From NCBI RefSeq assembly GCF_019797865.1, contig NZ_CP081869.1, positions 3,796,501-3,860,500 on the forward strand: a stretch of DNA of 64,000 bases, in the 5' to 3' direction. The position numbers and the translations under genes were made by a program. The DNA comes from Chenggangzhangella methanolivorans. GTDB lineage: Bacteria > Pseudomonadota > Alphaproteobacteria > Rhizobiales > Methylopilaceae. The first letter of the stretch is position 1. Each line of letters begins with the position of its first letter. The notes below the pieces were generated by a model. That model was not told where the DNA came from. It searched no databases and saw only the letters and a list, made by a program, of their open reading frames with translations. Below are positions 37,698-49,428 of this stretch, piece after piece.

Positions 37698-39878
37698 TCA
37701 GGGCTTGGCGCGGGTCTCAAGCCCCGCCCATTTCGCCGCGAAGGCCCACATGTCCGCGACCTCGGCGATCATCTTGTCGGTCGGCTTGCCGCCGCCGTGG
37801 CCGGCGCGCGCCTCGACGCGGAGAAGGCGCGGCTTGGGGCCGAGATCGGCGGCCTGGAGCGCCGCGACATATTTGAAGGTGTGGCTCGGGACCACGCGGT
37901 CGTCGGTGTCGGCGGTGACGGCGAGCACCGCGGGATAGTCCGCGCCGGACCGGACGTTGTGATAGGGCGAGTAGGCGATGAGCGTCGCGAAGTCCGTGTC
38001 CTTGGCCGGGTCGCCATATTCGTCGACCCAGAACTGCCCGCCGGTGAAGCGGGGGAAGCGGACCATGTCCATCACGCCGACGCCTGGAATGGCGGCGGCG
38101 AACAGGTCCGGCCGCTGGTTGGCGACGGCGCCGACGAGAAGTCCGCCGTTCGACTCGCCCTGGATCACGAGGCCGTCCTGCGAGGCGATCCCCTGCGCCT
38201 TCAGGAACTCGCCCGCCGCGATGTAGTCGTCGAACACGTTCTGCTTGTTGGCCCGCCGGCCGGCGTCGTGCCAGGCCTTGCCGTATTCGCCGCCGCCGCG
38301 AAGGTTGGCGACGGCCGCGACGCCGCCCTGTTCGACCCAGGCGAGGAGCGGCGGCGAGTAGAACGGCGCGAGCGGAATGCCGAAGCCGCCATAGCCGTAA
38401 AGCAGAGTCGGCGCCGGCCCCTCGACGTCCTTGCGGCGGATGACGAAGATCGGGATCTTGGCCCCGTCCTTCGATCCGTAGAAGCGCTGCTCCACCACGA
38501 TCCTGTCGAGGTCGATCGGGACCTTGGGCGCGGCCCAGACCGTGCTGGCGCCGGTCTCGACGTCGTAGCGATAGATCGTGGTCGGGGCGTTGTAGCTCGT
38601 GAAGACATAGAAGACCTCACGGTCGCTCGCCTCGCCGAGGAAGCCGCCCGCGGTCCCGACGCCCGGCAGCTCCCTCGCCCGCCGGCGTCCCGTCGGTCTC
38701 GAAGCGCCGGACGCGCGTCTTGACGTCCTCGAGATAGGTCAGGATCAGCTTGCCGCCGAGCAGGCCGCCGCCGCTCAGGACCGTCTGGCGCTCCGGGATG
38801 AGGTCGCTGAAGACCGGCTCGTCGCCGCCGAGGTCCATCGCCAGGACCTTGCCGCGGGCCGCGCCCTTGTTGGTCATGACGTAGAGCGTCGGTCCCTCGT
38901 TTCCGACCACGTACCAGAAGTCGCCGTCGGCGGCCGCCACCGTCTTCGGCCGCCAGTCGGCGCTGTCGAGATCGATGATCGTCAGCGCGTTGTTGCCGGC
39001 GCCGGGCGTCGAATAGACCGCGAGATAGCGGCCGTCGTCGGTCGCCTCGACCGAGTGGATGAAGTGCGGCCGCTCGGGGTCGGAATAGACGAGGCGGTCG
39101 GCGGACTGCGGCGTCCCGAGCGCGTGATGGTACACCGCATGGCCCGAGACCCCGGCCTGGAAGGTTCCGCCGGCCACGGGCTCGGGAAAGCGCGTGTAGA
39201 AGAAGCCCGCGCCGTCCTTCGACCAGGCGATCGAGGCGAAGCGGGCCCACTCGATCTTGTCGTCCAGCACGTCGCCGGTGTCGACGTTCACGACCCTGAT
39301 CACGCGCCAATCCGAGCCGTCGTGCTGGATCCCGTAGGCGACGTGCTTGCCGTCCTTGGAGGGCGCCCATTCGCCGAGCGCGGTGGCGCCGTCCTGCGAC
39401 CAGCCGTTCGGATCGATGAGGAGGCGGTCCTTGCCCGCGGCGCCGTCGCGCACATGCAGCGCCGCCTGGTTGTCGAGGCCGGCGTTGCGGGTGAAGAAAT
39501 AGCGGTCGCCGCGCTTGCGGGGCGGGGCGAGCCGCTCGTAGTTCAGCAGCGCCGAAAGCCGGTCGCGGAAGATCTTCCTGCCCGGCAGGGCCTCGAGATA
39601 GGCCTCCGTGACGTCGTTCTGCGCCGCGACCGCCGCGACCTCGCCGTCTTCCCGGATGTCGTTCTCCAGCCACCGGTAGGGATCGGAGACCTTCTGTCCG
39701 AAATGGTCCTCCACCAGTTCGACGCGCTTGGTCTGGGGATGGGCGAATGCGGGCATGATCGTCTCCGATAGCGATTGGCGAATGAGGGCGAGGGGAGGGC
39801 GGCGACCGGCAGGGCGAGCGCCGCGCACAGCAGCGCGGCCCGGAGGGGCGGCGAAGGAGGCGAGGGGCTGCGCGTCAC
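37698..39878 (-). CDS. prolyl oligopeptidase (S9A family), probably exported, frameshifted
   Basis: A serine peptidase of about 690-725 residues: a seven-bladed propeller with the opening KVSDPYRWLENDI, then an alpha/beta-hydrolase domain with YGYGGFGIPL, ANLRGGGEYGKAWHDAG, nucleophile Ser in VIQGESNGGLLVG, Asp in TADTDDRVVPSHTFK and His in RVEARAGHGGGKPTDK. An indel near 38675 separates the two parts. ATG 39756 gives a cytosolic protein. A GTG at 39878, overlapping the TetR stop as GTGA, begins a convincing signal peptide (TRSPSPPSPPLRAALLCAAL, ending PSFA) in another frame that would join after one indel near 39780. I prefer the exported form. It cleaves after proline in short peptides. Confidence 0.85.
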
Positions 39879-40541
39879 GGCCTGCCCCCGAAGACGTTCG
39901 GAATCACGGGATCGCAGATCGGCAGCGTGCTCGCCGCGCGGATCGCCTTCGCCATCTGCTCGACCACGTCTTCGAGCGTGAATGTCTGCTTGTGGCGGAT
40001 CGCCGCGACGCTGATGGTCTCGTCCACGATCCGGATCGCCGCCACCATGGTGGCGGCGCACAGGCGCACGTCGAAATCCTTGACCGAGCGGTCGAGCCGG
40101 TCGGCCACGATCGCGATCAGGGCGTCCTCGGTCTCCTGACAGGACATCAGCCAGACCGAGCGCAAATCCGGCTCCTCCGGCATGACGGCGATGAGGCGCA
40201 CGATCAGCACCTCGTCGGCGATCTCCTGCTGCGTCTTGGCGTCGAGCCGGAAGCACTCCCTGAGATGGGCCTCGATCGTGGCCTCGCGCGGCCAGCGCTT
40301 CAGCTTCTCCAGAAAGCCGCGGTGAGAGGCTGAGAACAGCGGGTCGACGCAACTCTCCTTGGTCCGGAAACCGCCAGACCGTGCGTTTGGAGAGCCCGGC
40401 CGCGGCGGCGATGTCGTCGCCGCTCGCGCCCGAGACGCCGCGCTCGAGGAAAAGCTTCGCGGCGTGGCGCGCGACCGACAAACGGGCGTCATCTCGATCG
40501 TCGACCATTGTTCCGCGTCGATGTGTGTCACTAAGTGACAT
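39875..40541 (-). CDS. TetR/AcrR-family transcriptional regulator, frameshifted
   Basis: A protein of about 220 residues. The N-terminal helix-turn-helix reads ARHAAKLFLERGVSGASGDD then IAAAAGLSKRTVWRF. One extra C near 40372 shifts the frame and the helical ligand domain continues as ESCVDPLFSASHRGFLEKLK to the stop. ATG 40541 or 40508 are both possible starts. Its stop overlaps the possible GTG start of the peptidase gene by four bases, so the two form an operon. The ligand is unknown. Confidence 0.78.
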
Positions 40542-40715
40542 TTATCGTGGCGCAAAGTGTCAGAAGTGGGGCGCGGTCGTCGACCATGCGCGATGGGCGC
40601 AGATGGCGGCCTCCGGCGCGGATGACGAAGTCGCGGACGGCGCACAAACTGTCTGGCGGATACGTATTTCTACCTATACGGTCCGTCGCGGCGATCGTCG
40701 CCGGTTGGGGGGTCC

Positions 40716-43700
40716 ATGAAGCTCGTTCGGTCGGCGCGGCTGTGGTTCAAGGAAGGAACCTCGGACAAGCTCTACGAAGTCGATCTGATCGAGAACGACG
40801 CCCTTCAGTCCGACCAGCGCTTCATCGTCAATTTCCGTTACGGCCGCCGGGGCGCGACGCTGCGCGACGGGTCGAAGACGCCGCAGCCCGTCGCGGCCGC
40901 CGCTGCCGAAAAGATCTTCGACAGCATCGTCGTCTCCAAGGTGAACGACGGATATCGCCGGACGACCAGCCCGCCGCCGCCGCCCAGACCCCCGAAGCCC
41001 CCGGGGCGTCCGGCCCGACCGCCCTGCAGGGCGAGGCGCTCGACGGACGCGGCCGCGAGCTGATCGCGCGGCTCGAGGCCTGCGTGCGAAGCCCCTGGCC
41101 CGCCCGCGACCTCGACCGGCTGGTCTGGCGCATCGGCCAGCTGAAGCTTCGCGCCGCCGGTTCCTTGCTCGTCGAGCTCGCGTCGCGGATCGGTCCTTCG
41201 GAGGCGAGCTACTCGCTCGTCTGGGCGCTTGCGCGCGCTGGGCAGGAACGCGCCGCGCCGATGCTTTCGGAGGTCGCCGCCAAGTCGAAAAGCGCGCTGA
41301 CCCACGACCTCGCACGTTTTGCGCTCGCTTCGACGCTGATGGGCGAGGCGCGGATCCACGACAGCCGCGACGGCGACATCCTCGACGCCGTCTCGCGCGC
41401 GGCCGCCGAGGCCGGCGGCCTCGTCCAGGCGCTTGTCGATCTCGGCTCGCGCGAGCCGGCCCGCGTCGGCGGCGATGGCGGCGCTCGCGCGTCGCGCGCA
41501 GGGCGATCGGGCGCGCCACGCCGCGCTCGTGGCCGCGATCCGGTCGCTGCCTGCGCGCCCGCCGTTCCTCATCGGCCTGCGCCGCCTCTTCAAGCACGCC
41601 GAGATGGCCGACGACGCCGCGCTGTTCGCCGTGACGGCGCGCGCCTTCGAGACCGCGCGGCCGATGTATGTCCGGCCGAACTATCCCAACGCCCGGCCCT
41701 GGATCCCGGAGCTCGGCGCGGGCGATCCGGATCGCCGACGTCGCGGGCCGGCCGGACGCGAAGGTCGGCCTCTCCAACGTCACGCTCGCCTATCTCAAGC
41801 GCCGCATCTGGCGCTCGCTGCGCAAGCGCGGCGAGGTCGGCGACCCGGCCTACGCCGAGCTCAGCTGCGGCTATCTGCTCAGCCTTCGGTCCGAAGACAT
41901 GTCGCCCCCTGTCGTCAAGACGTTCTGGAAGCGCGGCGACAACGGGCGCTGGAGCCGCGAGGAGCGCGCGACCGGCGGAGGCCTCAACCGCAACTGGTCC
42001 GCGAGCCAGATCCTGCGCCGCGACGATCCGCTCGCCGAGCCGCGCTATGCGAGCCTCACCTTCGGCGAGAAGCCCTCCGACACGGGCGCAACCGAGCGCC
42101 CGGAGGCCTTCGCCGCGCTCTGGGACGCCCGGCCGGACCTCGCGCTCGATCTCGCGGCCGACGGCGCGGTCGAGCCCGTGTCGCGGCTCGGGGTGCGGGT
42201 GCTGAAGGCCAATCCCGGCTTCCTGAAGAGCGTCGACGCCGCGGCGCTGCTGCGCCTGCTGCGCTCGGTCGACGTCGCGGCCCAGGGGCTCGGCTTTTCG
42301 GAGGCGCGCGACCGCCTGGCGAGCGGCGAGGCCGATCCGGCGCTGCTCGCGGCGTTGCTCGCCGCCGACTTCCCCGAGGCGCGCCGCCTCGCCGTGACGC
42401 GGATCGACCGCGACCCCTCGCTGCCCTGGAGCGACGCCGGGCTCGGCCTTGCGGCGCTCACCTCTCCGCATGACGACCTCTCCGACACCGTGCCGCGCTG
42501 GGCGGGCGAGCGGCGCGTCGACGCCGTCGTCGGGGCCGAGCTCGCCGACCGCCTCGGCGCATGGCTTCTCGCCATCGCCCCGGAGCCCGAGGAGGCGACC
42601 CAGGCGCTTATCCGCCGGGTGCGCGAACGCATCGGCGCGCTCTGGCGCGACGGCGACATGCCGATCGGCCACGCGGCGATCGACGCGTTCGCCCATCCCG
42701 CGGCCGCGGTCGTGGCCGCCGGCATCGACATCCTGGCGCTTGCGGGCGCGGACGTGTCGTCGGTTCCGAACGAGCGCTGGGCCGCGCTGCTCGGCTCGTT
42801 CGAGACCGACGTCCAGAGCGCGGCGTTGCGCCTCTTCGGCCGGCTCGACGACGACACGCTCGCAAGCCATGCGAGCCTCGTCGTCGCCTTCGCCACCGCG
42901 CCCTCGAGCGAGCTCCGCCGCGCCGCCCGGCCGCTCGTCGTGCGGCTCGCGGCGCGCGATCCGGGCCTCGCCGAGCGCCTGTCGCGCGATCTGATCGACA
43001 GCCTGTTCCGGACCGCGCCCGACGAGGCCTATCCGGGCGACGTGGTGGCGCTGCTCAAGGAGGCGACGCCCGCGCAGGTCGCCGCCATCGATCCCGGGAC
43101 GCTGTGGCGCCTGCTGCAGGCCCGCGCCAAGGGCGCGCAGCTGCTCGGCTCGACCGAGATCCAGAACCGCCCGGCCTCGCAGCTTTCTGTGCGCCAGATC
43201 GCGCGGCTCGGAAACCACCCGCATCTTGCCGCGCGGACATGGGCGCTCGCCGCGTTCCGCGACGATCCCGGCCGCTTCCAGAACGAGGCCGAGGACGCGG
43301 TGCTGCTGGTCGAAAGCGACTGGGACGACGCGCAGGAGTTCGCGCGCTCCTACTTCGACGGCTGGCCGGAGGACGCCTGGAGCCCGGCGGCGCTCGCCGT
43401 CGTCACCGACAGCGTGAAGCCCGACGTGCTCGCCTTCGCCCGCCGCCTGCTGCGCAGCCGCCTCGCCCCCGGCGACGCCGCGGCGCAGCTGACGCGCCTG
43501 CTCGAGCACCCCGCGCAGTCGATGCATCTGCTCGCCACCGAGCTCATGACCGAGGACGCCGCCGCAAGCGAGGAGGCGTTCGACAAGCTCCTGCCGCTCG
43601 CCCGCATCGTCATGCTGCAGGTCCACAAGGGACGCATCGCCAAGGACCGCGTCACGGCCTTCCTGCTGAAGGAGGCGCTGCGCGACCGCGGCCGAGCCGA

Positions 43701-43851
43701 GCGCGTCGCGCCGCTGTTCGCCGATCTCTCGATCGCCGGCGTCGCGCGCGACCGCGCCGCCGCGATCCTGGCGTTGCGCGACATCGGCGCGGCCCATCCG
43801 GGAATCGAGACACCGCTCAATCGGCGCGCGGCGCCCGTGAGGGCCGCCTGA
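40716..43851 (+). CDS. large WGR-domain protein with HEAT-like helical repeats (retron accessory protein candidate), frameshifted
   Basis: A protein of about 1045 residues. Residues 1-85 form a WGR domain (LWFKEGTSDKLYEVDLIEND, then FRYGRRGATLRDGSKT), a nucleic-acid/poly-ADP-ribose-associated module also found in MolR/YehI-type proteins. The rest is rich in Ala, Leu and Arg and reads as repeated helix pairs like HEAT repeats (for example ALLRLLRSVDVAAQ and RLAVTRIDRDPSLPWSD). Indels near 40975, 41470 and 41725 interrupt the first third; the last 700 codons are intact. The stop overlaps the next start (TGATG), so the SWIM protein is translationally coupled. The likely role is as an effector or sensor in the retron system; E. 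coli YehI/YehQ-like housekeeping clusters are the alternative. Confidence 0.75.
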
Positions 43852-45524
43852 TGAATTTCGTGCATCGCTATTTCGGCGCGACCTCGGCGTCGTCGGACGC
43901 GCTTTCGACCGCGCTCGCCTTCGCGCCCGACCTCTTGCGCGAGCCCACTTATTTCGTCGGCAAGGTGCGCCGCCACCTGCCGTTCCGCGAGGCGATCTCG
44001 GCGCTGCATCACGTCGTGGTCTCGGACCTGCGCTTCAAGCCGAAGGACCGCACCGCCTATTTCGCCTGGCTGAAGGACCACGAGGAGCAGCTGCTCGCCG
44101 AGGCCGTCGCCGAGCGCGGCGCGGTGAGGGAGCGGATCGACGCGCTTCGCGTGGAGTTCGCCGACATCCACAAGCTGTCGAGCGAGATCATGCGCCCGTT
44201 CTACGGCGCCCAGAAGCGCTACTTCGACTGGCTCTACCAGAACAACCGCGACGCCTGGTTCGTGCTGGACCCGGTCATCACCGTCCATCCCGACGAGGTG
44301 TTCTTCGAGTGCTTCAGCCTCGACGAATCCACCTATGGCCGGCTGTCCTGCGACCACGACGTGTTCGAGCGCGTCGAGGAGATGGCCTGTGGCACCACCA
44401 ACATCGACTACAGCCACGCGCTCTACGACGAGTTCCAGAAGATCCGCAGCTATCGCGACACCTCGCTCACCATCGAGCCCTCGGGCTTCGAGGTGCAGAC
44501 GGCGGGCGAGGCCAATTTCCGCGAGGAGAAGATCGACCTGCCGGACAGCTGGATGCGCGGCTTCCTGCAGGTCTCGAGCGCGATGGCGCAGCCGGCCCAC
44601 GTCGTCGACCTCGCTCCGGTCGACATGCACGCGATCCTCAGCCGTCTCGCGGCCAAGCGCGAGCGCCACGGGCCGCGGTCGCTGCGCTTCCTGCTGGAGC
44701 CCGACAAGCCGGTCGAGGTGCTGATCGAGCCGTGGAACGACCGGCTCACCTTCCGCCGCTCGATCTACAAGGGCTCCGAGCCCGCCGAGATCCGCATCTG
44801 GGGCCGGCGCCGGCTCGCCATCCTCGAACGCGCGCTGCCGCTCGCGAAATCGGTGCGGCTGCATCTGCTCGGCAGCGGCCTGCCGTCCTTCGCGGTCGTC
44901 GACTATGGCGGCCTGCGCTTCACGCTCGGGCTTTCGGGCTGGACCGCCAACGACTGGTCGCGCGCCGGCCAGTTCGACCTGCTCGCGCCCCGCACGGAGG
45001 TCGACGAGACCACCGCGCAAAAGGTGTTCGACGCGCTGAAGGGCCAGCATTTCGCGACCGTCCCCGAACTCGCCTTCGAGACGGGGCTCGACCGCTCGAT
45101 CGTGGCTGGCGCGCTCGGCCTCTATGTGCAGGCGGGCCGCGCGATGTACGACCTCGACAAGGGCGTCTATCGCCTGCGCGAGCTCGTGCGCGACCCGCTG
45201 AAGCCCGGCGCGCTGCGCTTTTCTTCGGAACAGGAGGAGAAAGCCGACCGCTTCGTCGCGGCGAGGCTCGTCACGATCGGCTCGGTGGATACGCGCGAGG
45301 GAAAACGCGTCTCCGGCGAGGTGATGGACGACGGCAAGACGCATCATCCGCGCCTCGTCATCGACGCCGACGATCGGCTCTCGACCGCGGCCTGCGACTG
45401 CTGGTTCTACGGTCACAACAAGCTGATGCGCGGCCCCTGCGAGCACATGCTGGCGCTGCGCCGGCTCTATCACTTGGAGGTCGAGGGCAAGCCCCGCGCC
45501 TTCCGGGCGGAGGGCGTGGCGTGA
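43851..45524 (+). CDS. SWIM zinc-finger protein with winged-helix-like region (WHSWIM-type, retron accessory candidate)
   Basis: A 557-residue uninterrupted protein. Near the C-terminus (about 523-545) the SWIM zinc-finger CxCx(n)CxH is present as ACDCWFYGHNKLMRGPCEHM. Before it (about 385-450) is a helix-rich stretch, TAQKVFDALKGQHFATVPEL then FETGLDRSIVAGALGLYVQA, with winged-helix character. The N-terminal half is unlike families I know. SWIM domains bind DNA or protein. The gene is coupled to the WGR/HEAT gene and precedes the retron-like non-coding region and reverse transcriptase. This set matches what I recall of the HEAT plus WHSWIM retron class (type XIII). Confidence 0.8.
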   Translation: MNFVHRYFGATSASSDALSTALAFAPDLLREPTYFVGKVRRHLPFREAISALHHVVVSDLRFKPKDRTAYFAWLKDHEEQLLAEAVAERGAVRERIDALRVEFADIHKLSSEIMRPFYGAQKRYFDWLYQNNRDAWFVLDPVITVHPDEVFFECFSLDESTYGRLSCDHDVFERVEEMACGTTNIDYSHALYDEFQKIRSYRDTSLTIEPSGFEVQTAGEANFREEKIDLPDSWMRGFLQVSSAMAQPAHVVDLAPVDMHAILSRLAAKRERHGPRSLRFLLEPDKPVEVLIEPWNDRLTFRRSIYKGSEPAEIRIWGRRRLAILERALPLAKSVRLHLLGSGLPSFAVVDYGGLRFTLGLSGWTANDWSRAGQFDLLAPRTEVDETTAQKVFDALKGQHFATVPELAFETGLDRSIVAGALGLYVQAGRAMYDLDKGVYRLRELVRDPLKPGALRFSSEQEEKADRFVAARLVTIGSVDTREGKRVSGEVMDDGKTHHPRLVIDADDRLSTAACDCWFYGHNKLMRGPCEHMLALRRLYHLEVEGKPRAFRAEGVA

Positions 45525-45623
45525 TGGTTTGCCATGCAGGCGCGGGAGCCGCGACGCTGTCCGTCCTCGCAAGGGGGAGGGGCGCGCGCGCGGCGCGTCC
45601 CGCGTTTTCGAGATTGATGGATC

Positions 45624-45917
45624 GGCGCGGGGCCCCTAAGCTCCGCGTCATGAGGGGCGCCGGCCGGCGAGGACCTTGCAATCCGGGCGGCGTTTCGCCG
45701 TCCTTGCACCTTGCCCGGCAAAGCGTCACTGGCCCGCTCTTCACTGGGGCGGCATTGGGCACCGGTGCGTGTTTACGGTTTGGGTTCGTTGAACCCAAAC
45801 ACGCACCGGTGCCCATGCCGCCTTCGAGTGGACCGGTCCAGTCCCAGGACGAGACGAAGGCAAGCCGTCCGGCGCTCCTCATCTCCCCCCTTAAGACGAT
45901 CTCCGCGGGGCCGCGCC
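45624..45917 (+). ncRNA. putative retron msr-msd non-coding RNA
   Basis: The 394-base gap between the SWIM gene and the reverse transcriptase holds no gene but has retron architecture. The ends are complementary: GGCGCGG plus CCCC (45624-45636, with a two-base bulge) pairs with GGGGCCGCGCC (45907-45917), like the a1/a2 stem. Directly after the first arm is CTAAGC, with a candidate branching G at 45640. An msr-type hairpin GGCGGCG-TTT-CGCCGTC follows at about 45685-45702. The msd part would be the very long hairpin 45748-45822, flanked by CACTGG (45728) and CCAGT (45837). The second arm ends two bases before the RT ATG. The exact ends are inference. Confidence 0.68.
45748..45822. repeat. long inverted repeat (candidate msd stem)
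   Basis: The left arm (45748-45787) begins GGCGGCAT and contains GGGCACCGGTGCGTGTTT and TTGGGTTC. The right arm (45791-45822) is GAACCCAAACACGCACC followed by GGTGCCCATGCCGCC. The right arm is fully complementary to the left, apart from eight extra bases bulged in the left arm, with a GTT loop. A 32-base-pair stem is far beyond terminator size and fits a retron msd. Confidence 0.88.
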
Positions 45918-45918
45918 C

Positions 45919-47574
45919 ATGAACGCGCAGCCCGGCTCCATCACGCGCCAGCAGCTTCACGACCGCATCCGCGAATCCTCGCGCGACGAGGTCATCCTCG
46001 AGGAGATGATCCGCCTCGGCTTCTGGCCGGGCGGCGAGGACAAGCCCAACCTCCCCGAGGGCCTGATCCGCCGGCGCGGCGAGATCACCCGCGAGCTCTC
46101 CGAACTCGCCGCCAAGGACGCGCCTGCGCGACCCCGAAGCCGCGATCAAGGAGATGCACAAGCGCCGCAAGAAGGCGGCGATGGAGCGGCGCAAGGAGAC
46201 CAGGAAGAAGAACGCGCAGGGTCGCTACGATCGCGCGCTCGCCTGGAGCGAACGGCGCAGGAGCGAGCTCGTCTATCTCGGCGAGGGCGTCTCCGGCGGC
46301 CTTCAGGCCGAAGACGCGCCCGCGACGCCGAAGGCGGGCCTGCCCGACATCGCGAGCCCCAAGGCGCTCGCCGACGCGATCGGCGTGCCGCTTGCCGAAC
46401 TCCGCTTCCTTGCCTTCGACCGCAAGCTGACGGCGATCAGCCACTATCAGCGCTTCTCGATCGCGAAGAAGACCGGGGGCCTGCGCCAGATCTCGGCCCC
46501 GATGCCGCGGTTGAAGCGCGCCCAGTACTGGATCCTCGACAACGTCCTGGCCAAGGCCGCGATCCACGAGGCGGCGCATGGCTTCGTCCCAGGCCGCTCG
46601 ATCGTCACCAACGCGCAGGCGCATGTCGGCCGCGACGTGGTGGTGAACCTCGACCTCAAGGACTTCTTCCCGACGCTGACCTTCCGCCGGGTGAAGGGCA
46701 AGTTCCGCGGCCTCGGCTATTCGGAGCCGGTCGCGACCGTCCTGGCGCTGCTCACCACCGAGCCCGACGTCGACGAGGTCGAGATCGACGGCGAGCGCCT
46801 GTTCGCCTCCAAGGGGTCGCGTCTCCTGCCGCAGGGCGCGCCAACGAGCCCGATGCTCACCAATCTCGTTTGCGTGCGGCTCGACAAGCGCCTCGCCGGC
46901 CTCGCGAAGTCGATGGGCTTTTCATACACCCGCTACGCCGACGACATGACGTTCTCGGCCTCCGGCGAGGCCGCCGCCAAGGTCGGGGCGCTGCTGAAGT
47001 TCGTGGGCGAGATCGTGGCGGCCGAAGGCTTCACGGTCCATCCCGACAAGACGCGGGTGATGCGGCGCGGGACGCGCCAGGAGGTCACGGGCCTGACCGT
47101 CAACGATCGCGTCGGCGTGCCGCGCGACGTGCTCCGCAACTTCCGGGCTCTGCTCCACCAGATCGAGAAGACCGGCCCCAACGGCAAGCGCTGGGGCAAG
47201 GCCCGCGACGTGATGGACGCGGCGACCGGCTTCGCCTGCTTCGTGCGGATGGTGACGCCCGAGACCGGTGAGGCGCGCTGCTGAGCGAGGTTCGCCGGCT
47301 CGACGCGCGCCAGGGCCGGGCGGTCGCGGCGCCCGCGCCGTTCCGCGCGAAGTCGGCCGCCGGCCAGCAGCCGCTCGAGCGCTGGTGGACGCCCGCCGAA
47401 CCGGCGCCCCCTCAGCCCGAGCCGGTCCTGCTCGAGCCCGAGCCGCAGCCGGAGCCGCCCTCCGAGAAGAAGCCGCGCAGCGCGTTCGACATGGCCGGGA
47501 TGCGGGCCCAGATGCGCGACCGCGTCGCCAGCCCGCCGAGCCTGAGCCGATCGACGAGCCCGAAGGCGGCATGA
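45919..47574 (+). CDS. retron-type reverse transcriptase with proline-rich C-terminal tail, frameshifted
   Basis: A protein of about 550 residues. A basic helical N-terminal extension (about 1-140) precedes an RT core: GLRQISAPMPRLKRAQYWIL, then AAHGFVPGRSIVTNAQAHVG (retron NAxxH at 46610-46624), NLDLKDFFPTLTFRRVKG, PQGAPTSPMLTNLVCVRLDK, catalytic YADD (46934-46945) and the retron VTG motif (47084-47092). An extra C near 46126 breaks the N-terminal part. As given the frame stops at 47284; restoring one C there opens a proline/glutamate-rich tail ending at 47574, overlapping the next ATG as ATGA. Retron RTs copy their ncRNA into branched msDNA, usually for phage defence. NAxxH and VTG separate it from group II intron RTs. 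Confidence 0.88.
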
Positions 47575-47720
47575 AGCCCTGGGTCGCGGTGATCGGCGTC
47601 ATCGTGCTGGTGCAGTTCGCGTTCGCCGTGAACCCGCTGCTCGGCCTGCTGGTCGCCTTCGCAGCCGGCTTCATCGCGTTCCGCCGCTGGCTCCGGCGCC
47701 GCAAGCGCAACCGTCGCTGA
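47571..47720 (+). CDS. small single-pass or hairpin membrane protein after the retron RT (or RT C-terminal anchor)
   Basis: A 49-residue protein: MKPWVAVIGVIVLVQFAFAV, a second hydrophobic stretch LLGLLVAFAAGFIAF, and a very basic end RRWLRRRKRNRR. Its ATG overlaps the RT tail stop (ATGA). Upstream in the same frame lies an acidic proline-rich phrase (AEPEPIDEPEGG) that continues the character of the RT tail, so one indel near 47527 would fuse it to the RT as a membrane anchor. Which form is real cannot be decided here. Confidence 0.5.
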   Translation: MKPWVAVIGVIVLVQFAFAVNPLLGLLVAFAAGFIAFRRWLRRRKRNRR

Positions 47721-47732
47721 AGGCGCGAGGTC

Positions 47733-48086
47733 TTGGAGATCGCGCGCCGGGCCGCATGGCTGCTGGTCGGCTTTTCGGGCCGGGTCACTCGGGGCGCCTA
47801 TCTCGCGGGACTTATCGGCTCCGCTGCCGCGCTGATCCTCGCGCTGCTGGTCTTCGAGCCGGCGGCGCTGGAGGCTGAGACGCTCGCCTTCACGCCGACG
47901 GTCACGGCGGCGCTCGTCGCCGGCTGGTGGACCTGGCTTGCGCTGCTGGTGAAGCGCCTGAGGGACGTCGGCCTCGGATGGGGCTGGTCTCTGCTCCTTC
48001 TGCTGCCGGGGCTCCAGCCCGTCGTCCTCGTCGGTTTCGCGGTTCCGAAAAGCCGGCCGGCGGACGGCGAGCGGCGTCAGGGATAG
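47733..48086 (+). CDS. DUF805-like small integral membrane protein
   Basis: A protein of about 117 residues (likely TTG start at 47733) with FSGRVTRGAYLAGLIG near the N-terminus, two central membrane segments and VKRLRDVGLGWGWSLLLLLP, the hallmark R-x-R-D-x-G-x-x-G phrase of DUF805. The function of DUF805 proteins is unknown. It follows the small membrane gene by 12 bases and may be co-transcribed with the retron genes. Confidence 0.75.
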   Translation: MEIARRAAWLLVGFSGRVTRGAYLAGLIGSAAALILALLVFEPAALEAETLAFTPTVTAALVAGWWTWLALLVKRLRDVGLGWGWSLLLLLPGLQPVVLVGFAVPKSRPADGERRQG

Positions 48087-48538
48087 GGTTCGCGCTCGAG
48101 CGGCTTCAACTGGAGCACGTCCTCACCGCGGCGCATCCGCAGGCTGAGGCGGAAGGAGCCGCCGATCCGCTCCGAGCGCTCGATCCAGAAGGCCGCGACG
48201 TCGGGCGGGCAGATCTCCTCGACCGTCAACCGGAACAGCGCCAGCCATCGCCGGAAATGCGCGTCGCCGAGCTCGGGCAGGCGGATGTGCTTGGCGAGCG
48301 GCCGGCCGTCGTAGCGGCGGGTTCCGAGGAGCATCGAGCTCCAGAAATCCACGATCGTGTCGAGATGCGCCGACCATCTCTCGTCGGGGACCGCGGCGAC
48401 GAAGACGGGGCCGATGACGGCGTCCTGGCGGGCGAGCGCGTAGAAGCGATCCACCACCGCGCGGATCATCGCCTCGTCGAGCCCGGAGGCCGAGAAAACC
48501 GGGACGTTCCGCGCGGGCGGCGTGGCGGATTGCGTCAT
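48077..48538 (-). CDS. group III truncated haemoglobin
   Basis: A 153-residue protein of the 2-on-2 globin fold: VDRFYALARQDAVIGPVFVA, DFWSSMLLGTRRYDGRPLAKH, and HFRRWLALFRLTVEEI with the proximal His. Group III globins bind oxygen or nitric oxide and are often linked to nitrosative or redox stress. Its ATG overlaps the stop of the upstream LysR gene (ATGA), so the two are co-translated. It is convergent with the DUF805 gene, and the 3' ends overlap by ten bases. Confidence 0.88.
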   Translation of the reverse strand: MTQSATPPARNVPVFSASGLDEAMIRAVVDRFYALARQDAVIGPVFVAAVPDERWSAHLDTIVDFWSSMLLGTRRYDGRPLAKHIRLPELGDAHFRRWLALFRLTVEEICPPDVAAFWIERSERIGGSFRLSLRMRRGEDVLQLKPLEREPYP

Positions 48539-49428
48539 GGGCGCGCCTCGCAAAACGCCGCGCCGACATGGTCGAGGAACCGCTCGAAGGCCGCCGTGAG
48601 CAGGCTGTCGGTCCGATGGACCAGCAGCGTCCCGACCCGCCCTTCATCGTCCGCAAGGCGGTGCATCGACACCCTTCCGGCGCGCTCCATCGGCTCGGCG
48701 ACCACGCGCGGCAGCAAAGAAACGCCCATGCCGGCCTCGACGCAGCCGATGATTCCGTCAAGCGTTCCGAACTCCATGCGCCGGACATGGACGAGGCCGT
48801 GCGCGGCGAGAAAGGTCTCGAACCGCTGACGATAAGAACAGCCCGACCTGAAGACGAGAATTCTCGCCTCGCGCTTCTGCGCGAGCATGGAGACGACTTC
48901 GTCGAAGCTCTTGATCCTCGGGGCGGCGACGAGCACGAGCTCCTCGTCGAGCACGGGATACGACGTCAGCTCCGCCTGGAAGATGGGGCCGGCGACGAAG
49001 GCGGCCTCGACGCGACGGTCCAAAACCGCGGCGAGCAGGGCCTCGGTCGGGCCGAGCTCCAGCTCGACGTCGACCTCGGGAAAGGCCGCGGCGTAGCGCG
49101 TCAGCAGCTTCGGCAGCCTGAGCGCCGCCGTCGTCTCCATCGCGCCAAGACGCAGAGATCCTTGGGGAGTTTCATCGGAGAGCACGGCCTGCTCGGCGTC
49201 GGCGAGCAGCCGCGAGACCTGCGTGGCGTAGGGCAGCAGCCGTTCGCCCGCCCGCGTCAGCGTCACGCCCTTGGCTCCCCGGTAGAACAGCGGCGCGCGC
49301 AGCTCCTGCTCGAGCGAGCGGATCCGGCCCGTGACGTTCGACTGCACGGTGTTGAGCGCAAGGGCCGCTCGGCCGATGCCGCCGGCCTCGGCGACGGCCG
49401 TGAAGAAGGCGAGGTCGGTGCTGTTCAT
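48535..49428 (-). CDS. LysR-family transcriptional regulator
   Basis: A 297-residue LysR protein: helix-turn-helix AGGIGRAALALNTVQSNVTG then RIRSLEQELRAPLFYRGAKG, and a periplasmic-binding-like effector domain with LRLGAMETTAALRLPKLLTRYA. It diverges from the nitronate monooxygenase gene across 118 bases and is coupled to the haemoglobin gene. The usual LysR arrangement suggests control of the divergent genes. Confidence 0.92.
   Translation of the reverse strand: MNSTDLAFFTAVAEAGGIGRAALALNTVQSNVTGRIRSLEQELRAPLFYRGAKGVTLTRAGERLLPYATQVSRLLADAEQAVLSDETPQGSLRLGAMETTAALRLPKLLTRYAAAFPEVDVELELGPTEALLAAVLDRRVEAAFVAGPIFQAELTSYPVLDEELVLVAAPRIKSFDEVVSMLAQKREARILVFRSGCSYRQRFETFLAAHGLVHVRRMEFGTLDGIIGCVEAGMGVSLLPRVVAEPMERAGRVSMHRLADDEGRVGTLLVHRTDSLLTAAFERFLDHVGAAFCEARP

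What the first reader, a model, noticed from the sequence alone, without database searches (positions are those of the whole stretch)
40716..48086. Complete candidate retron with WGR/HEAT and SWIM accessory proteins
The sequence shows a WGR/HEAT-like gene coupled (TGATG) to a SWIM zinc-finger gene, a structured non-coding stretch, and an RT with NAxxH (46610), YADD (46934) and VTG (47084). From family knowledge these three motifs define retron RTs, and HEAT plus WHSWIM accessory proteins are what I recall as the type XIII retron class, for which I know of no worked-out mechanism. Inference: an anti-phage abortive-infection system in a methylotroph-like alphaproteobacterium. The N-terminal WGR domain and the basic RT N-terminus could be distinguishing features.
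Basis: partly seen in the sequence, partly recalled or inferred. Interest (0 to 1): 0.88.

Follow-up and report, generated by a model that had tools for sequence, protein, structure and literature searches.

The report
Type XIII retron with membrane-tethered RT
This is a type XIII retron, a bacterial system thought to guard against phages by copying an RNA into DNA; comparison with its relatives suggests that the copying enzyme sits on the cell membrane and that one partner protein is built like the ring that holds DNA during replication, which makes a poorly understood class of retron testable.

Summary
The proteins match the PADLOC type XIII models very strongly. A covariance model built without the window finds the ncRNA at E 1.5e-44.

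In this assembly the WGR/HEAT and RT genes each lie in four collinear pieces with frame changes between them. A neighbouring gene is split too, so sequencing error is likelier than decay. WGR is part of the known type, not a distinguishing feature.

Three family-wide features turned up that my paper searches did not show. (1) The RT has a C-terminal membrane segment in 55 of 79 distinct uncut RTs, and a Trp-containing end in 17. (2) The SWIM protein is predicted to hold a PCNA-like sliding-clamp fold, on structure evidence alone. (3) The ncRNA hairpin has a nearly fixed length, 74-79 nt, across phyla.

Best reading: a membrane-tethered abortive-infection retron whose SWIM clamp and WGR/HEAT scaffold are held on msDNA until phage disturbs it. 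Identity is near certain, fold and tether likely, the killing step inferred.

The parts
40716..43851 (+). WGR-HEAT gene, frame-broken into four collinear pieces in this assembly
   Evidence: WGR_XIII 3.5e-40 (N-terminal piece) and 2.6e-176 (main ORF 41668-43851); tblastn pieces
43851..45524 (+). SWIM gene, 557 aa, intact; predicted sliding-clamp fold about residues 30-365, then winged helix, then SWIM finger CxCx12CxH at residues 515-532
   Evidence: SWIM_XIII 7e-223; sequence; model and fold search
45648..45891 (+). ncRNA region folded and aligned, including the closing stem
   Evidence: fold z -9.33; alignment A2
45650..45666 (+). 5' arm of the closing stem (a1 candidate)
   Evidence: minimum-energy fold
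45674..45860 (+). ncRNA core matched by covariance model R1
   Evidence: 166.3 bits, E 1.5e-44; only match at E<=0.1 in the genome
45746..45822 (+). long hairpin of the msd, 77 nt, 32 pairs
   Evidence: alignment columns 101-180 and fold
45866..45882 (+). 3' arm of the closing stem (a2 candidate)
   Evidence: minimum-energy fold
45919..47720 (+). RT gene, frame-broken into four collinear pieces; NAxxH 46610, YADD 46934, VTG 47084
   Evidence: RT_XIII 4.3e-167 for ORF 46154-47284; tblastn pieces; sequence
47571..47720 (+). C-terminal membrane hairpin of the RT with Arg-rich end
   Evidence: Kyte-Doolittle maximum 2.35 over 19 residues; homologous to the end of the intact M. capsulata RT

Best explanation
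A type XIII retron that works as an abortive-infection system. The RT copies the ncRNA into msDNA whose main feature is a long hairpin of nearly fixed length, and the RT's C-terminal tail holds the complex at the inner membrane. The WGR-HEAT protein is a scaffold. The SWIM protein, whose body is predicted to be a PCNA-like sliding clamp with a winged helix and a zinc finger, is held on the msDNA duplex. When phage replication, nuclease or DNA-binding proteins disturb the msDNA, the SWIM/HEAT pair is freed and stops the cell, most likely by acting on replicating DNA as a false clamp. Shown by computation: identity, gene set, ncRNA structure, presence of the tail, predicted clamp fold. Inferred: membrane location, the complex, the trigger and the killing step.
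For: Type XIII models for all three proteins. ncRNA found by a covariance model built without the window and single in the genome; 94.6% of cells paired and covariation score 0.478 against 0.070-0.109 for the slid controls. HEAT, SWIM, ncRNA, RT in one order on one strand in 74 of 80 related loci. C-terminal membrane segment in 55 and Trp-containing end in 17 of 79 distinct uncut RTs; 0 of 18 other RTs with a C-terminal membrane segment. SWIM model: the 50 listed PDB matches are all PCNA or sliding-clamp entries, best E 2.3e-9, TM up to 0.75 by target length, 474 matches at E<=0.001; informative names in the viral list are clamps or processivity factors. HEAT model resembles large helical-repeat proteins only (50 listed). 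Hairpin 74-79 nt with 26-33 pairs in 73 ncRNAs. Other retrons sense phage through msDNA (passages of PMC12887533, and PMC13405049).
Against: No sequence profile links SWIM to clamps (PDB hmmsearch; hhalign with four DnaN, probability 0.5%; no internal repeat), so the clamp rests on one predicted model (mean pLDDT 78.6). Seven of 79 distinct uncut RTs show neither tail. Of the 17 Trp-pattern ends, two (L061, L064) are really hydrophobic ends, and these ends are not more amphipathic than some control RT ends. Membrane segments were called by hydropathy alone. Whether any of the three proteins is toxic is untested. Two of three genes are frame-broken here.
Confidence: 0.5

Rival explanations
1. 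Type XIII retron, but the RT tail is itself the killing part: phage attack on the msDNA lets the tail damage the membrane, and SWIM and WGR-HEAT are the sensor and its scaffold.
For: The tail is present in most relatives in two different forms; no known enzyme domain was found in SWIM or HEAT.
Against: The membrane parts vary from one short segment to hairpins and to Trp-containing ends without a membrane segment, as expected of an anchor rather than of a pore; no pore family was hit.
Confidence: 0.15
2. Type XIII retron in which the SWIM protein is a DNA- or RNA-binding regulator or msDNA-packaging protein; the clamp-like shape is a prediction error or a fold without clamp function, and WGR-HEAT is the toxin.
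For: Clamp fold is seen by structure only (negative); winged-helix and SWIM parts bind nucleic acid in other proteins (recalled). WGR binds DNA ends in PARP1 (recalled).
Against: Residues 141-360 are predicted with block pLDDT 70-97 and the order of strands and helices is (beta-alpha-beta-beta-beta) four times; two libraries give clamps.
Confidence: 0.25
3. In this strain the locus is decaying: the frame changes are real mutations and the retron no longer works.
For: Three frame changes each in WGR-HEAT and in the RT; a congener (G007) keeps only RT residues 327-413 and no HEAT, SWIM or ncRNA.
Against: All pieces are collinear and no part of the ncRNA or SWIM is broken; the neighbouring prolyl oligopeptidase is split too; the genome is scored 88.37% complete in one contig.
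Confidence: 0.1

Closest known systems
Type XIII retrons (PADLOC RT_XIII, SWIM_XIII, WGR_XIII)
   Same: All three proteins, gene order, ncRNA between SWIM and RT.
   Different: Nothing specific to the window apart from the frame breaks. The RT tail lies beyond the 469-position PADLOC RT model, and the clamp fold was not seen in my paper searches.
Methylopila capsulata DSM 6130 locus (L022)
   Same: Nearest RT in the tree; RT 83% identical over the main piece, SWIM 82%.
   Different: All genes open; ncRNA frame 94% but hairpin arms only 69% identical to the window's.
PCNA and other sliding clamps
   Same: Predicted fold of SWIM residues about 30-365.
   Different: A helical insertion (about 68-131), an added winged helix and SWIM finger, no detectable sequence similarity.
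SWIM plus DUF6493 gene pairs (Diaphorobacter, Asticcacaulis; a Streptomyces pair with DUF7824)
   Same: SWIM protein 24-27% identical in alignment A6, SWIM_XIII model 2.9e-52, 3.7e-50 and 5.3e-40, followed by a large gene.
   Different: No RT annotated within 6 kb (gene tables incomplete), no ncRNA hit, no helical insertion, and DUF6493 does not match WGR-HEAT (hhalign probability 1%).
Retron-Eco8; retron-Kva2 (type IX)
   Same: RT, msDNA and partner proteins, msDNA acting in phage sensing (passages).
   Different: Effectors are an OLD nuclease or a HEPN RNase with a winged-helix protein; no membrane tail in the passages seen.

Membership tests
Type XIII retron | RT of the type XIII family with NAxxH, YADD and VTG (motif set recalled) | tested here: met
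   RT_XIII 4.3e-167, next best model 3.2e-97; motifs read
Type XIII retron | SWIM (WHSWIM) partner | tested here: met
   SWIM_XIII 7e-223; in 43 aligned members SWIM Pfam hits 38 and DprA_WH hits 10
Type XIII retron | HEAT/ARM or WGR partner | tested here: met
   WGR_XIII 2.6e-176; frame-broken in this assembly
Type XIII retron | structured ncRNA with closing stem next to the RT | tested here: met
Type XIII retron | msDNA is made, with a 2'-5' branch | not testable with these tools
   needs nucleic acid from cells; the branch G was not assigned
Type XIII retron | protects against phage | not testable with these tools
   inferred from the retron class
Group II intron or DRT reverse transcriptase | scores over the curated model cut-off | tested here: not met
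   group II maturase 65.5 of 300 bits, Drt2 43.1 of 390, Drt3a 21.6 of 200
Sliding clamp (SWIM protein) | fold | tested here: met
   on a predicted model only
Sliding clamp (SWIM protein) | sequence-profile similarity | tested here: not met
Sliding clamp (SWIM protein) | ring around DNA | not testable with these tools
   no prediction of complexes offered
Membrane-anchored protein (RT tail) | hydrophobic membrane segment near the C-terminus | tested here: met
   window tail 2.35 on the Kyte-Doolittle scale; 55 of 79 distinct uncut relatives at 1.6 or more

The most novel reading that the evidence does not exclude
Type XIII retrons are membrane-docked machines in which a PCNA-like clamp protein grips an msDNA hairpin of fixed length (about 31 base pairs). 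The hairpin is the bait; some Bacteroidota and a verrucomicrobial contig carry tandem ncRNAs before one RT, with different hairpin arms in the two arrays compared; damage to the bait frees the clamp to jam DNA replication.
Probability: 0.25. Interest if true: 0.87.

Novelty: new member of a known kind. Interest (0 to 1): 0.6.

Why it matters
Type XIII is one of the retron types for which my paper searches found no mechanism. If the clamp fold and the membrane tether hold, they tell an experimenter which residues and which domain to remove first, and would make it the first retron known to me built around a sliding-clamp-like protein. The covariance model of its ncRNA (family-wide, nearly fixed hairpin length) gives a precise start for isolating the msDNA and for use of its RT as a DNA-writing tool.

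Tried and rejected
Rejected: group II, DRT and housekeeping-pair readings. WGR or basic RT N-terminus as a novelty: both are inside the PADLOC models. Rfam: one match, mir-766 at 35 of 110 bits, taken as chance hairpin likeness. Clamp by sequence: PDB hmmsearch gave nothing relevant, DnaN hhalign 0.5%, internal repeat none. HEAT against DUF6493: 1%. Hairpin arms as hypervariable: not so among near relatives (arms 0.98 identical in 17 pairs with RT identity 0.95 or more); they drift faster than the frame at middle distance (0.77 against 0.93 in 69 pairs) and differ strongly only between tandem copies. Amphipathicity of Trp-containing ends: did not separate them from control ends. One pair-count measure (further pair types) was not above its shuffles, 339 of 500. 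An empty insertion site was not shown: the left neighbour (prolyl oligopeptidase piece) is in 1 of 13 genomes of the genus, the window's own; the right neighbour at 48080-48553 is in 10 of 13. Type XIII in viral contigs: 4 relatives at 28-31% identity, not pursued beyond use as control RTs. SWIM in phage records and (as DNA) in E. coli genomes: no match. My note that L066 has HEAT and SWIM replaced was wrong: its contig begins 1.1 kb before the RT and the genes after the RT are a histidine kinase and FTHFS.

Rows dropped: ncRNA alignment A2 used 73 of 75 intergenic cores (L087 and L090 left out by a motif filter); hairpin lengths are for those 73. Model R1 was built from 35 of the 75 cores (window not among them), so 35 of its hits are by construction. 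Tail count: 83 RT rows, of which L005 and L006 are the same sequences as L022 and L048, and 2 are cut by contig ends. Control RTs: 21 loci tried, 18 gave a sequence; L102 and L105 look alike, L010 is a fragment. Tree: L005, L006, L015, L042, L075 and L088 left out; 7 of 18 controls used. SWIM alignment A3 used 43 of 75 sequences (74 loci plus window), HEAT alignment A4 used 30. DnaN alignment A10 used 4 of 10 loci inspected.

Full report
What was checked. The SWIM gene (43851-45524) overlaps the end of the WGR/HEAT gene by TGATG, and NAxxH, YADD and VTG stand at the stated places. Two things were missed. First, the WGR/HEAT and RT genes are not open in this assembly: the intact Methylopila capsulata proteins match them in four pieces each, in order, with frame changes between pieces. 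The RT therefore runs from 45919 to about 47720. Second, the end of the given range is a DUF805 gene. A neighbouring prolyl oligopeptidase is split the same way, and by eye so is the TetR-like gene beside it (only its C-terminal domain was tested). The genome is one contig scored 88.37% complete. I read the breaks as assembly errors, without reads to prove it.

What it is. PADLOC gives RT_XIII 4.3e-167, SWIM_XIII 7e-223 and WGR_XIII 2.6e-176 and 3.5e-40 for the two WGR/HEAT pieces scanned. A genome scan kept the best 80 of 238 relatives of the RT. The same order HEAT, SWIM, gap, RT on one strand is found in 74 of 80. In 3 more (L048, L066, L075) the contig ends too near. L081, L082 and L088 lack the pair with 6-8 kb of upstream sequence at hand. 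In a quick tree the window RT is sister of Methylopila capsulata (96, starred) inside 77 type XIII RTs and apart from 7 other RTs (92, not starred). SWIM_XIII occurs in 2 of 385 genomes of the class, both with RT_XIII.

The ncRNA. The gap before the RT holds one conserved element. In 75 intergenic stretches (74 loci and the window) two anchor motifs stand 147-153 nt apart. In 73 of them the alignment gives 31 consensus pairs, 23 with changes on both sides; 94.6% of cells are paired, and the covariation score is 0.478 against 0.070-0.109 for slid controls; four of five measures beat all 500 shuffles and one (further pair types) does not. The window's 244 nt fold at z -9.33. A covariance model built from 35 other loci finds the window at 45674-45860 with E 1.5e-44 and nothing else in the genome at E<=0.1. 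It hits 75 of 80 loci (35 of them by construction) and misses L048, L075, L081, L082 and L088. The long hairpin measures 74-79 nt with 26-33 pairs (median 31) in the 73. Its arms drift faster than the frame but keep pairing.

The RT tail. Beyond the RT core the relatives carry a tail. By hydropathy (1.6 or more over 19 residues, last 95 residues) 55 of 79 distinct uncut RTs have a C-terminal membrane segment; 17 more match a Trp-based end pattern, mostly of the form PWWKFW, though two of these (L061, L064) are hydrophobic ends; 7 have neither. Of those 7, L057 stops beside a run of N with a hydrophobic stretch in another frame, and L082 and L088 also lack the partner genes and the ncRNA. None of 18 other RTs has a C-terminal membrane segment. 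Membrane segments lie in Pseudomonadota and one Thermodesulfobacteriota row, Trp ends mostly in Bacteroidota, Verrucomicrobiota and Myxococcota; the tree needs 7 changes of state. The window's tail scores 2.35 and ends in an Arg-rich stretch. I take the tail as a membrane tether. For the Trp ends this is weaker, since their amphipathicity does not stand out from control ends.

The partners. The SWIM finger CxCx12CxH is in all 76 sequences listed, of which L005 duplicates L022. An AlphaFold model of the window's SWIM protein (43 sequences, mean pLDDT 78.6, pTM 0.74) matches sliding clamps: all 50 listed PDB matches are PCNA or clamp entries, 474 in all at E<=0.001, best 2.3e-9. The viral library gives PCNA, DnaN and herpes-type processivity factors among its informative names. 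The order of elements reads beta-alpha-beta-beta-beta four times between about residues 34 and 361, with a helical insertion at about 68-131 (my reading). Cousins outside retrons lack that insertion. Sequence profiles do not see the likeness, so it needs an independent test. The WGR-HEAT model (30 sequences, pLDDT 89.2) resembles large helical-repeat proteins; Pfam finds WGR in 23 and HEAT_2 in 20 of 30 members. SWIM cousins sit before DUF6493 genes without an annotated RT nearby, so the SWIM protein may have been taken into the retron from a stand-alone pair.

How it may work. Other retrons hold an effector through the RT-msDNA complex and release or activate it when phage proteins act on msDNA (passages of PMC12887533, and PMC13405049). 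Here the parts suggest a complex docked at the membrane by the RT tail, an msDNA hairpin of set length, a clamp-like SWIM protein on that hairpin, and a HEAT scaffold. Release of SWIM/HEAT would stop the cell, most simply by interfering with replication as a false clamp. The last two sentences are inference.

What is known. Eight paper searches showed one paper that names type XIII retrons, as a PADLOC annotation in Variovorax (PMC11953036, passage), and none in their listings that describes a clamp fold or a membrane tail for it. The library holds only open-licence papers, and the paper that I recall as defining the types is not held, so this is not proof of absence. I file the locus as a new member of a known kind; the new part is what the comparison says about the kind.

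Noticed in passing
L090:7075-7866; L066:154-891; L098:7277-7724: Tandem ncRNAs before one RT: three in L090, three (plus a weak partial match at the contig start) in L066, two in L098. In L090 and L066 the copies share the frame but have different hairpin arms that still pair.
   Followed up: partly
L082:8001-9407; L088:6292-7467: Cyanobacterial RTs of the type XIII family without HEAT, SWIM, ncRNA hit or RT tail; a Uma2 gene lies just before the one in L082.
   Followed up: partly
L117:8446-8706: A congener (G007) keeps only RT residues 327-413 (92% identity to M. capsulata), with no HEAT, SWIM or ncRNA hit in 18 kb: a relic of a lost retron.
   Followed up: yes
L122:5752-12085; L123:5782-10070; L121:5815-9760: Stand-alone SWIM plus DUF6493/DUF7824 gene pairs on plasmids, homologous to the retron SWIM protein; function unknown.
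   Followed up: partly
window 37698-40645: Prolyl oligopeptidase split over two frames, and by eye the TetR-like gene too, which points to frame errors in the assembly.
   Followed up: partly
G000:C1:2001768-2002118 and 1480862-1481263 (L002, L003): Two further RT matches in the same genome, the second with an internal stop.
   Followed up: no
L048 and L006: An alphaproteobacterial type XIII RT of 820 aa with an unusually long C-terminal part.
   Followed up: no
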